Shown in pieces: positions 4,544 to 59,948 of a stretch of 64,000 nt of DNA (the first letter of the stretch is position 1; each line of letters starts with the position of its first letter). The DNA is from Metridium senile (taxonomy: Eukaryota; Cnidaria; Anthozoa; Actiniaria; Metridiidae), in NCBI GenBank assembly GCA_949775045.1, contig OX459109.1:3913975-3977974 (forward strand). Direction: 5' to 3'. The notes under the pieces are model-generated. The model worked only from the letters and a program-made list of their open reading frames with translations, was not told where the DNA came from and made no database searches. Made by a program: the position numbers and the translations under genes.

Positions 4544-7500
4544 TTAGAGACTCGTATCCCATATTCCTTCATGTTCATTTTTCAAATTCATGAGATTTTC
4601 TTTGATCACTGTTGCTATATTTTCCTTTCCTTCTTGAATACTTGTGTACATTAAATCATTTATCTGCAAAGAAAAACATAAGAATTATCATACTTTTTGA
4701 AAACAAAACCACTAAGAAGTTGTTACTGAAATGACTGAATAAATCGATGCATCCACAGTTACTGACTCATTGCACAAACGACTGAGTAGTGGTTACTCAA
4801 ACAACTGAGTAAATTAATGAATCCACAGTTGCTCACTGCAAAAACGACTAAGAAGAGGTTACTCAAAAAAACTGAGTAAATCGATGAATCCACAGTAATT
4901 CCCTGCAAAAACGACTGAGTACGTAGTGGTTACTCAAATAACTGAGTAAATCGATGCATCCACAGTTACTCACGGAATTTTTCTCTCGAAAGTCCGTCTG
5001 TGAATCAGAGCAACGAATCGTGTTCTGGCCCCCAGCGAACTACACGATTATATATACTAGATGCTGATTGGCTTTCGATGATGCTCTTTCTTACACGAAC
5101 TCTCATTGGACAATTCAATACTTCCGGTTATGTTGAATTGTAGACGGACTTTCGAGAGAGAAATTCCGGCTGTACTCACTGCACGAACAACTGAATAGTG
5201 GCTACTCAAACAACTGAGTAAATTGATGATCCATAGTTACTCATTTCAAAAACGAATATAATAATATAATAATAACTGAATATAATGACTGAATAATTGA
5301 TGCATAAACAGTTAATAACTTTTTTTCACGTCTCAATATTCTAGCTGCATGGCCGCAGTGCGCTCTACTAATTGGGGAGACTCACTCACACTCACTACCT
5401 CTACGTTTAATATTTTGTAGACAACTCGGCTCACATGTTCATTTTTGCTAATAAAGGAAAACAGATAACCCGGCCGGAGAAAAACCCTCGTGGCATAGGA
5501 GAGAAGAGCACATCAAACAAACTCAACTCACATTTTTATCCATACCCGAGCCGGGACTCAAACCTGGACCACCGCGTCTCACCGCTAAGCCACCCATGCC
5601 ACCCACACAGGTATAATTATTCACAGTAAGTACTACTGCAAGTATTGGATTTTCGGGTGACCCAGTAGTAGTCCCCTTAAAAGCTCCATGCGCCATCTTG
5701 AATGGTAGCCGGGCCTTTGTATCAACTCGAGACAAACGTTGTGCTTGCAATGATCATTGCAAAATTCATTGACAATTCAAAAGCTTTCCAGCCAATCCGA
5801 TATGAGAAATCAGATCACATGAACAACCTTGTAAAGCCCATTCAAACTTAAAGCACGAGAAGGGTTTGAATAATCGTCAGGGAAAAAGGGAATAAAACAA
5901 TGAACATGTAAATTAGAATATAGACTCGTGAATAACCGCGAGGTGTCTATCATTGCAAGCTCAACGTTCCTCTAGCTTGATTCGATGCAAAAGCCCGGCT
6001 ACCTTTCAAGATGGCGTAGGGAACAGTGAGATGGATTATTTTAAAAATCGATGCCAGCATGATGCATCGATTTACTCAGTTATTTGAGTAACAACATATT
6101 TCTTACAACTAAGATGTCACACCTTTTTGTATTCTATGAAGTCTTCACATTGTATGGCCAGCATTTTCAGCAGCTGACCAAACTGTCTGATATCACTCAA
6201 ATAAGAGTTATTTGTTCCGCAGACTTTGCAAGAGTTCGAGAAGTCGGCCAAAACAGCACGTATCGGATCATCCTAAAAAAAAGAAACGTAGATCTTGCAA
6301 CCATTGTTCTCCATTGAATCTTCTGATCATGAGGTACAGACCAGTTATTATTAGTTGGGGAGGGGTATGAGGGGCGATGGGATGGGGTGTGGCTAAGCTC
6401 GCTCGATATTATTTGCCGAATTATGCTGCGGCAGGTCGTATTGCATTGCAACGTACGTTATATCAGTATTATCATCATTATCATCAACATCGTCATCTTT
6501 TATATAGACATCTCATCATAATCATCAACATCTGTCATAACATCCATGATCATGATCATCATAAATCATTGTATCATCATTTCAGAAATATCATCACAAA
6601 CTGTTAACGTTACTACCAAGTGCTTAAAAGCCATTATAGAATTTATTTGAACTTACGTTAACAGTAACAAGGATCGTCCTGGTGTTAATATTGTTATGGC
6701 AAATCTTCTTCTCGTGTAGATATCCTAGTGCGGTGATAACATCTATGGCCAATGCACACACAACACTGAACGTCATAGGATGTTCACTGTCCATATAGTC
6801 CTGCAGGCTCGTACGGGAGACATAGCTATAGCAGATTCTGCCATTAATAGAAAACAGTCAAATATCAACAATGGATAGTCGAAATAAATATATGTTATTA
6901 TTTATATACAAATGATTATAAAAAGTCTCGCGTGTGTACGTACTGATTGGTTTAACAACGTCGGAATATTTTTTGATAATAACCTACAGCATCTCGCGCG
7001 CCTTTACAATGGAAAAAACTAAATGTTTTTCTTCAAAAGCGCCTTGTTAAATATATACGACAGACAATTATTCTCCTCTGGCTCGTTGAATATTATCAAA
7101 TAATCAATAGCCTCGATTTTGTCTCGGGTTTTTTTTTACGCAATATTCATCTTTCAATGTTACATTTTTTTTGCATAGGATTGTGGGTATACGGGAATAA
7201 GGTTGGCATCCGGGCATCTGTCTTTTCTCTCGCCATTCTCTCTCGGCCATTTTTTCACCCGATCGATCGAACAAAGTCGTTTCATCGAATATTTTGTAAA
7301 AGTAAAGATTGTTTTATTGTCTTTCGATTTTTTTTACAGCATACAGATTACTTACAATAAGCTTTTATCCAGGTTTGAGATTTTGATTTTAGAATCATCG
7401 ATTGTATGTAAAGACCCTGTGTAAATAAATGAATCAATCAATCAATCAATCAATCAAATATCTTATCAAAAATATATAACTGCACCCGCTTTTTTAAGGC

Positions 7501-59948: not shown

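What the first reader, a model, noticed from the sequence alone, without database searches (positions are those of the whole stretch)
4544..59948. One gene may join about twenty adhesion/lectin domains, LRRs, a GPCR core and a pseudokinase
Sixty-one minus-strand exons follow one another with compatible phases from a D8C-like exon to a kinase-like end. GPCRs with LRR and LDLa modules (GRL101 type) are known. An ectodomain with seven MAM, two C-type lectin, LamG, F-type lectin, PA14, pentraxin, two F5/8C, SRCR and CUB domains on a seven-helix receptor with a cytoplasmic kinase fold is not a layout I recognise. The mixture of glycan- and lipid-binding modules suggests a pattern-recognition or allorecognition receptor (inference).
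Basis: partly seen in the sequence, partly recalled or inferred. Interest (0 to 1): 0.88.

Follow-up and report, generated by a model that had tools for sequence, protein, structure and literature searches.

The report
Giant lectin-studded receptor with pseudokinase tail
In a genome that is likely a sea anemone's, one stretch of 49 kilobases reads without a break as a giant protein that joins about twenty extracellular modules (many of them predicted to bind sugars or lipids) to a seven-helix receptor and a kinase-like tail lacking key catalytic residues; other corals and anemones have single predicted proteins with the same order, so this is likely an overlooked family of sensors that would signal through both a G protein and a dead kinase.

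Summary
The core of the finding holds. A minus-strand model of 59 exons (53255-4544, 3869 aa, no internal stop, all AG/GT sites and phases compatible) joins seven MAM domains, SRCR, C-type lectins, LamG, F5/8C-type domains, LDLa, a pentraxin-like domain, CUB, LRRs, a class A 7TM and a kinase-like tail. All 15 named anthozoan proteins in the search listing carry MAM, LDLa, CUB, LRR and 7TM on one predicted polypeptide in this order; 13 of 15 also carry the tail. It is a GRL101/LGR-family receptor, not an adhesion GPCR. The tail looks like a pseudokinase: 0 of 22 aligned anthozoan tails have beta3-Lys, HRD-Asp and DFG-Asp together. Homologous tails, mostly shortened, score above every shuffle in 19 further GRL101-like receptors, including hemichordate, echinoderm, mollusc, annelid and arthropod ones, so the fusion probably predates the cnidarian-bilaterian split. 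A 2025 survey found GPCR-tyrosine-kinase fusions among animals only in sponges (PMC12716839). Corrections: the D8C exon probably lies outside this gene; SRCR is an in-frame cassette inside MAM3 not seen in the 15 relatives; the 5' exon was not found. Ligand and signalling are inferred.

The parts
53130..53255 (-). first modelled exon, start of MAM1 (signal-peptide exon upstream not found)
   Evidence: aligned to Nematostella P0012 residues 34-79
51764..53255 (-). MAM1 (3 exons)
   Evidence: Pfam MAM 1.1e-31
50014..51542 (-). MAM2 (3 exons)
   Evidence: Pfam MAM 4.3e-8; P0012 202-348
45382..48284 (-). MAM3 (exons 48284-48129, 46144-45867, 45472-45382), interrupted by the SRCR exon
   Evidence: Pfam MAM 1.6e-26; P0012 359-524
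47563..47898 (-). SRCR exon, symmetric phase 1-1, between the first and second MAM3 exons; skipping it keeps the frame
   Evidence: Pfam SRCR 5.3e-20; matched in 0 of 15 long anthozoan relatives; splice sites
44764..45126 (-). unassigned domain 1
   Evidence: no Pfam match; partly aligned to P0012 549-607
43313..43705 (-). C-type lectin 1
   Evidence: Lectin_C 1.3e-8
41920..42537 (-). LamG-like domain
   Evidence: Laminin_G_3 6.1e-14
40742..41149 (-). C-type lectin-like 2 (sub-threshold)
   Evidence: Lectin_C 0.0056
38572..39944 (-). F-type-lectin/F5-8C-like domain (2 exons)
   Evidence: F5_F8_type_C 5.6e-12
35617..37660 (-). PA14-like region (3 exons)
   Evidence: no Pfam match in the window; Nematostella counterpart PA14 1e-5
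34916..35281 (-). unassigned domain 2 (exons 35281-35204, 35091-34916)
   Evidence: matched in 11 of 15 long anthozoan relatives
32637..33822 (-). MAM4 (3 exons)
   Evidence: MAM 2.8e-19
32064..32282 (-). two LDLa repeats
   Evidence: Ldl_recept_a 3e-21
30436..30990 (-). LDLa-like cysteine-rich linker (2 exons)
   Evidence: homology
27963..29469 (-). MAM5 (3 exons; the first probably ends at 29329 rather than 29263)
   Evidence: MAM 6.2e-48 for MAM5+MAM6 together; donor check
25910..27840 (-). MAM6 (3 exons)
24454..25133 (-). F5/8C copy 1 (2 exons)
   Evidence: F5_F8_type_C 9.9e-28
22875..23543 (-). F5/8C copy 2; 824-bp tandem duplicate, 96.7% identical with its intron
19345..22456 (-). pentraxin/LamG-like domain (4 exons)
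   Evidence: Laminin_G_3 1.7e-10, Pentaxin 2.3e-7
16997..18059 (-). MAM7 (2 exons; lacks the usual first exon)
   Evidence: MAM 6e-13
15903..16247 (-). CUB
   Evidence: CUB 2.2e-24
11796..15563 (-). LRRNT plus seven LRR exons of 72 nt, each in the same phase
10157..11208 (-). LGR hinge and class A 7TM in one exon
   Evidence: 7tm_1 1.8e-34; 57% identical to Porites P0001
4544..9091 (-). cytoplasmic tail: pseudokinase (exons 9091-8916, 7971-7815, 7416-7356, 6837-6657, 6272-6123, 4663-4544) ending WDTSL
   Evidence: PK_Tyr_Ser-Thr 6.7e-8; 177 bits with a profile of 21 anthozoan tails

Best explanation
The 53255-4544 stretch reads as one gene for a giant receptor of the GRL101/LGR family, which is predicted to use its module-rich ectodomain to sense glycans, lipids or cell surfaces and would likely signal through a G protein together with a catalytically impaired kinase-like tail. 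Shown by calls: exon continuity, the domain inventory, the same order in single predicted proteins of stony corals and sea anemones, and homology and residue losses of the tail. Inferred: that the gene is transcribed as one unit here; that the lectin, F5/8C, pentraxin-like, MAM, SRCR and CUB modules capture microbial, algal or neighbouring-cell surfaces; that the LRR-hinge passes binding to the seven-helix core as in relaxin and glycoprotein-hormone receptors; that the core couples to a G protein; that the pseudokinase works as an allosteric scaffold for partner kinases or G-protein regulators; and that the C-terminal [ST]-x-[hydrophobic] motif docks the receptor to PDZ scaffolds. In-frame cassette exons (SRCR, F5/8C pairs) would let the lineage change the sensor while keeping the signalling end.
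For: One gene: 59 exons, no stops, all phases compatible; 15 of 15 named anthozoan proteins among the 120 listed (of 289) hits carry MAM+LDLa+CUB+LRR+7TM on one predicted polypeptide and 13 of 15 also the tail; Nematostella P0012 matches the window from MAM1 into the 7TM, and Stylophora P0003 from MAM1 to the tail, in one collinear chain (the script seeks the best such chain). Family: 7tm_1 1.8e-34; window with Exaiptasia P0122 (99) inside an anthozoan clade of 35 rows (98) in a quick 77-row 7TM tree. Tail: kinase families in Pfam for the window; 177 bits with a profile built without it, 2180 shuffled tails reach at most 6.4; AlphaFold2 model of Oculina P0123 matches LGR receptors (TSHR 6e-15, RXFP1 1e-12) and kinases (JAK3 1.1e-8, BRAF 4.3e-8). 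Pseudokinase: K 21/22, HRD-Asp 4/22, DFG-Asp 1/22, all three 0/22. C-terminal [ST]x[LIVFM]: 20 of the 22 aligned tails, and 23 of all 31 anthozoan relatives with a tail match, truncated models included; about 4.3% expected by composition. Immune lead: a cluster of GRL101 genes with C-type lectins lies in a schistosome-resistance locus of Biomphalaria (PMC12297450, passages).
Against: No transcript was available. Many anthozoan database models are short (592-1498 aa, several without MAM), so either those models are split or shorter receptors are real. The search that brought the 15 long relatives admits only proteins of about 2000-6300 aa, which favours long ones. P0012 ends before TM7 and P0017 has a 29-aa tail. 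Some anthozoan GRL101-like receptors (P0160, P0162, P0177) have no kinase-like tail. The window's tail keeps the DFG-position Asp and the beta3 Lys, so nucleotide binding is not excluded. No ligand, coupling or immune role was tested; one author proposes an insulin-like ligand for GRL101 (PMC8286064, passages). In the snail locus the validated variant lay in a neighbouring RING-IAP gene, not in a GRL101 gene.
Confidence: 0.68

Rival explanations
1. Two or more neighbouring genes (a secreted or anchored MAM/lectin protein and an LRR-7TM receptor) that only look joined because phases happen to agree.
For: No cDNA here; the 5' exon was not found; short LRR-7TM-tail models without MAM are deposited, e.g. 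Acropora P0127 and P0128.
Against: 15 of 15 named long anthozoan relatives carry both halves on one predicted polypeptide; P0012 and P0003 match the window in one collinear chain across both halves.
Confidence: 0.08
2. The receptor is mainly a peptide-hormone (relaxin/insulin-like) receptor, and the lectin and adhesion modules only anchor it or tune access.
For: LRR-hinge-7TM core of the relative P0123 is closest in solved structures to TSHR, FSHR, LHCGR, RXFP1 and LGR4; PMC8286064 proposes an IGF-type ligand for GRL101 (passages).
Against: The ectodomain keeps a long run of glycan- and lipid-binding-type folds in the same order in anthozoans, and module copy number varies, e.g. 0 to 5 F5/8C matches, which suits recognition of varied surfaces (inference).
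Confidence: 0.25
3. The tail is an active protein kinase, making this a GPCR-kinase enzyme.
For: beta3 Lys in 21 of 22; HRD-position Asp in 4 of 22; the window keeps Asp at the DFG position.
Against: 0 of 22 have all three residues; the window has HNN instead of HRD.
Confidence: 0.07
4. The kinase match is a chance or low-complexity resemblance of a disordered GPCR tail.
For: Pfam scores are modest (window 33 bits) and short bilaterian tails score low.
Against: Anthozoan-tail profile 177 bits for the window, shuffles at most 6.4; separate Pfam models give a protein-kinase family as best match in 7 of the 8 non-anthozoan tails scanned; predicted kinase-fold match of P0123 to JAK3 and BRAF.
Confidence: 0.03

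Closest known systems
G-protein coupled receptor GRL101 [Stylophora pistillata], P0003 (4160 aa, database entry)
   Same: Same order from MAM1 to the kinase-like tail, including CTL, LamG, F5/8C, pentraxin-like, CUB, LRR and 7TM
   Different: No SRCR match; more F5/8C matches; the name does not describe the layout
GRL101 / LGR type C receptors (Lymnaea stagnalis; molluscs, arthropods, ambulacrarians)
   Same: LDLa + LRR + hinge + class A 7TM; homologous, mostly shortened kinase-like tail in some members
   Different: None of the named bilaterian GRL101 hits listed shows MAM; the snail tails of Lymnaea P0146, Biomphalaria P0172, Haliotis P0148 and Pomacea P0151 (69-75 aa) show no kinase match
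Relaxin receptors RXFP1/2
   Same: LRR-hinge-7TM; RXFP1 7TM aligned to the P0123 model over 266 residues at 2.5 A, 38% identity
   Different: Vertebrate tails P0212, P0220 and P0221 (60-61 aa) show no kinase match; simpler ectodomain
GPCR-TK and GPCR-TKL/K receptors (choanoflagellates, sponges, oomycetes, amoebozoans; PMC12716839)
   Same: 7TM followed by a cytoplasmic kinase domain
   Different: Their 7TMs are other families; the paper reports GPCR-TKs in sponges but in no other animal lineage (section 26); here the core is class A and the kinase is degenerate
CUB/CTL/F5-8C-bearing GRL101-like receptors of Acanthaster and Saccostrea (P0035, P0046)
   Same: CUB, CTL and F5/8C modules on an LDLa-LRR-7TM core
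   Different: No MAM, LamG or pentraxin listed; tail reduced (P0046, 20 bits) or not above background (P0035, 1.8 bits)

Membership tests
GRL101 / LGR type C receptor | class A (rhodopsin) 7TM | tested here: met
   7tm_1 1.8e-34
GRL101 / LGR type C receptor | LRR ectodomain joined by a cysteine hinge, LRR exons of one repeat each | tested here: met
   LRR_8 2.1e-44, seven 72-nt exons in one phase, FILCCYAK hinge; that this exon pattern marks LGRs is recalled
GRL101 / LGR type C receptor | LDLa repeats | tested here: met
   two LDLa plus an LDLa-like linker; fewer than the twelve reported for Lymnaea GRL101 (PMC8286064 passage)
GRL101 / LGR type C receptor | 7TM clusters with GRL101/RXFP | tested here: met
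   search hits and quick tree; the midpoint-rooted tree does not settle whether anthozoans are nearer RXFP or GRL101, and no type A/B LGR outgroup was included
Adhesion GPCR | GAIN/GPS domain before a 7tm_2 core | tested here: not met
   no GPS/GAIN hit in the model pieces scanned at E up to 0.1; the core is 7tm_1
Pseudokinase | kinase homology with loss of catalytic residues | tested here: met
   window HNN for HRD, Thr at the catalytic Asn
Active protein kinase | beta3 Lys + HRD Asp + DFG Asp | tested here: not met
   0 of 22 anthozoan tails
GPCR-TK (choanoflagellate/sponge) | tyrosine-kinase domain of that clade | not tested
   those sequences were not fetched; best solved-structure sequence matches of the tail profile include TYK2, EGFR, JAK2 and ITK
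Pattern-recognition receptor | binds microbial molecules and triggers a defence response | not testable with these tools
   domain types only

The most novel reading that the evidence does not exclude
Animals carry an unrecognised, ancient class of GPCR-pseudokinase receptors: the GRL101 line already had a full kinase-fold tail in the common ancestor of cnidarians and bilaterians, hemichordates keep it nearly whole, echinoderms, molluscs, annelids, arachnids and centipedes keep a remnant, and vertebrate relaxin receptors lack it. In anthozoans this class swelled into giant sensors with about twenty exchangeable recognition modules in front of a dual G-protein/pseudokinase output.
Probability: 0.57. 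Interest if true: 0.86.

Novelty: new variant of a known kind. Interest (0 to 1): 0.76.

Why it matters
A recent survey found GPCR-tyrosine-kinase fusions among animals only in sponges and knows of none that has been functionally characterised (PMC12716839 section 26). This family would put a homologous kinase-fold tail on class A receptors of anthozoans and several bilaterian phyla, including species that can be manipulated such as Nematostella. It would make testable how a GPCR uses a built-in pseudokinase, and would give corals and anemones a candidate surface sensor of unusual modularity for microbe, symbiont or self recognition.

Tried and rejected
D8C exon as gene start: rejected as likely separate. 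It encodes only profile positions 42-87 of 88, no first-half exon was found upstream by tblastn with P0018, a mobile-element remnant lies between, and P0012 starts right before MAM1. It cannot be wholly excluded.

Signal-peptide exon: scans for ATG exons with a hydrophobic core ending in phase 1 gave only weak candidates, such as 58499-58418.

Standalone N-terminal half: a search with the MAM3-to-PA14 region returned 4 hits, none named as anthozoan, and missed P0012 although it is in the length range. So it says nothing about standalone halves.

Tail survey: the first survey cut tails by a motif and so left out several receptors (among them Lymnaea P0146, Strigamia P0194, Trichonephila P0199). 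It was redone with tails cut at the aligned 7TM end, which raised the non-anthozoan matches above the shuffle maximum from 13 to 19. The shuffles were made from the first set. The tree labels (13 changes) treated P0194 and P0199 as tail-less and P0012, a truncated model, as tail-less; mended labels give 10 changes. The odds of the novel case were raised from 0.55 to 0.57 for this.

One search printed translations in a wrong frame (display error for the first exon); corrected.

The genome search 'own' with PF00629 was tried six times, each time busy; the host genome was therefore not searched. Second structure job not used. The VIA-align second look covered mainly model residues 1-384, so it did not test the kinase part.

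Literature: searches showed no paper in their (capped) listings whose title or abstract start is about a GRL101-type receptor with a kinase-like tail or with this ectodomain. Papers opened: PMC12297450 (passages), PMC12716839 (passages and section 26), PMC8286064 (passages), PMC4079206 (passages). Others only as listings and abstract starts. Most subscription journals and all bioRxiv preprints are missing from the library.
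Full report
What is there. The window is about 36% G+C. On the minus strand a self-trained splice model chained 66 exon rows. After removing 14 weak or mobile-element rows, adding five 72-nt LRR exons, two homology-guided exons and the terminal exon, and leaving out the D8C exon, the model has 59 exons from 53255 to 4544, 11,612 nt, 3869 aa, no internal stop, 59 of 59 AG and 58 of 58 GT sites. The first MAM5 exon probably ends at the better-scoring donor 29329, which gives 3847 aa, still without a stop. 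Sixteen exons are symmetric 1-1 and the seven LRR exons are all 72 nt in phase 2-2, which by recall are signatures of module shuffling and of LGR genes. The control gives 832 for this strand, 23 for the other strand and 13-31 for five shuffles; the coding model was trained here, so the control is generous to this strand.

Domain inventory. Pfam supports MAM x7, SRCR, one clear and one sub-threshold C-type lectin, LamG, an F5/8C-like 'F-type lectin', two LDLa, F5/8C (the second, nearly identical copy was not scanned separately), a pentraxin/LamG-like domain, CUB, LRRs, 7tm_1 and PK_Tyr_Ser-Thr. PA14 is recognised only in the Nematostella counterpart (1e-5). Two further domains match nothing in Pfam. 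The first C-type lectin keeps an EPS...WND pair in sequence, as does the Nematostella counterpart (read); that such motifs mark calcium-dependent sugar binding is recalled.

One gene. The strongest evidence is comparative. A search with the LRR-7TM-tail region of the long model gave 289 hits, of which the best 120 are listed. All 15 named anthozoan proteins in that list (2127-4160 aa) were taken, and 24 window domains were mapped onto them by BLASTP. All 15 have MAM, LDLa, CUB, LRR and 7TM on one polypeptide, and the matched domains follow the window's order, though at some places another MAM or lectin copy matches best. Thirteen of 15 have the tail (P0012 and P0017 do not; in P0008 it is cut short); 9 of 15 have a C-type lectin match; 5 of 15 have F5/8C; 1 of 15 has D8C, at another place (P0018); 0 of 15 have SRCR. 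Nematostella P0012 matches from MAM1 (residue 34, after a signal-like N-terminus) into the 7TM, and Stylophora P0003 from MAM1 to the tail (the script looks for the best collinear chain, and matches outside the chain were not shown). These are predicted proteins, and the search admits only lengths of about 2000-6300 aa. Against this, one search lists anthozoan models of 592-1498 aa, several lacking MAM; these may be split models or truly short receptors.

What the window adds. The SRCR exon (47898-47563) sits in phase between the first and second MAM3 exons, so the reading frame survives with or without it; it looks like a lineage-specific cassette insertion. The F5/8C exon pair is an 824-column tandem duplicate, 96.7% identical including its intron; Oculina P0002 and Stylophora P0003 have four and five F5/8C matches. 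An assembly duplicate is not excluded. The 7TM is nearest to Exaiptasia P0122 (66% over 314 columns; SH-aLRT 99) in a quick tree of the window and 76 of the 140 relatives with an extractable 7TM, hence 'likely sea anemone'.

The tail. With a profile of 21 anthozoan tails that excludes the window, the window scores 177 bits and the best of 2180 shuffles 6.4. In a second survey with tails cut at the aligned 7TM end, 95 tails of at least 40 residues outside the training set were scored; 29 exceed 6.4 bits. Ten are anthozoan (64-353 bits). Nineteen are others: Saccoglossus P0145 (80) and P0040 (48), Ptychodera P0150 (66), Dimorphilus P0054 (31), Amphiura P0167 (31) and P0192 (12), Tegillarca P0218 (27), Saccostrea P0046 (20), Anneissia P0036 (20) and P0180 (18), the arthropods P0201 (23), P0194 (17.5), P0184 (16), P0193 (15), P0197 (15) and P0199 (13), Mercenaria P0195 (8, marginal), and two of unnamed source, P0045 (23) and P0202 (14). 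The other 66 do not exceed 6.4, among them snail GRL101 tails of 69-75 aa (P0146, P0148, P0151, P0172), Acanthaster P0035, the anthozoan P0160, P0162, P0177 and P0140, Trichoplax P0232 and the vertebrate relaxin receptors P0212, P0220 and P0221. A separate Pfam scan of 8 of the 19 gave a protein-kinase family as best match in 7 and a related kinase-like family (0.056) in the eighth, P0036; three of the eight are below 1e-4, the others between 0.0003 and 0.06. In the 22 aligned anthozoan tails (21 plus the window) beta3 Lys is kept in 21, the HRD-position Asp in 4, the catalytic Asn in 14, the DFG-position Asp in 1 (the window), and all three key residues in none. Twenty of these 22 end in [ST]-x-[LIVFM]; over all 31 anthozoan relatives with a tail match, window left out, it is 23, the eight misses including truncated models; 4.3% would be expected by composition. 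Reading this as a class I PDZ ligand is recalled knowledge. AlphaFold2 of Oculina P0123 (705 aa, mean pLDDT 70.0, pTM 0.46) has block means mostly 69-94 over the tail domain with dips to 52-58; Foldseek ranks TSHR, FSHR, LHCGR, RXFP1 and LGR4 first, then from rank 35 JAK3 (1.1e-8) and BRAF (4.3e-8). The profile of seven tails matches 1417 solved sequences at E up to 0.01, TYK2, EGFR, JAK2 and ITK among the best. The window's own spliced protein was not folded.

How it likely works (inference unless cited). The ectodomain is a string of modules of kinds known to bind glycans, phospholipids and proteins; capture of a microbial, symbiont or neighbour surface would pull on or rearrange the LRR-hinge and switch the 7TM, as in glycoprotein-hormone and relaxin receptors. 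The 7TM has DRL and NPFLY at the places of DRY and NPxxY (sequence; motif roles recalled), so coupling is plausible. The pseudokinase would act as a switchable scaffold, and the C-terminus would dock to PDZ proteins. A defence role has only indirect support: in the snail Biomphalaria sudanica a locus associated with schistosome resistance holds 12 GRL101-like genes, ten with C-type lectin, LDLa and LRR, but the validated variant lies in a neighbouring RING-IAP gene (PMC12297450 passages).

Placement and novelty. It belongs to the GRL101/LGR type C receptors (class A core, LRR-hinge, LDLa) and not to adhesion GPCRs (no GPS/GAIN hit, 7tm_1 core). PMC4079206 reports GRL101-type and relaxin-receptor-type LGRs in cnidarians (passages), and PMC8286064 places GRL101 among LGRs and notes its absence from vertebrates (passages); the passages shown mention no kinase-like tail. 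PMC12716839 reports GPCR-TKs in choanoflagellates and sponges but in no other animal lineage. Within the searches listed under Tried and rejected I found no description of this layout, so I call it a new variant of a known kind. The tree needs 10 changes between tail and no tail (42 rows with, 34 without, one truncated row not counted), so ancient origin with losses is my reading, not a proof.

Noticed in passing
   Followed up: partly
window 8715-8766 and 8176-8223: Two decayed partial copies (86.5% over 52 and 83.3% over 48 bp) of the start of the kinase N-lobe exon 7971-7815, lying in the intron before it.
   Followed up: partly
window 59793-59948: Orphan second half of a D8C (uromodulin-type) domain; no first half found upstream.
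   Followed up: partly
window 97-932: Plus-strand overlapping ORFs in two frames, each with part of a 7tm_1 domain: a second, apparently interrupted, rhodopsin-type GPCR next to the giant gene.
   Followed up: no
window 1406-2806: Plus-strand reverse transcriptase piece (1.1e-5) followed by a GIY-YIG piece (1.8e-4), Penelope-like by recall.
   Followed up: no
window 62459-63619: Minus-strand ORF pieces with reverse transcriptase matches, upstream of the gene.
   Followed up: no
window 32315-32571: 7-bp tandem repeat of 36 copies (TCTCCCT) in the intron between MAM4 and the LDLa exon, and a 169-bp array at 48476-49023.
   Followed up: no
window 56398-56469: tRNA-Trp-like call on the plus strand; possibly a repeat.
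   Followed up: no
P0188-P0191 (Pocillopora): LGR-type receptors, two with Ig-type Pfam domains, and cytoplasmic tails of 416-459 aa ending VLDTRL that show no kinase match: a possible different tail domain.
   Followed up: no
P0140 (Actinostola): A GRL101-like receptor model with SRCR plus LRR and 7TM, so SRCR has joined this family elsewhere in anemones.
   Followed up: no
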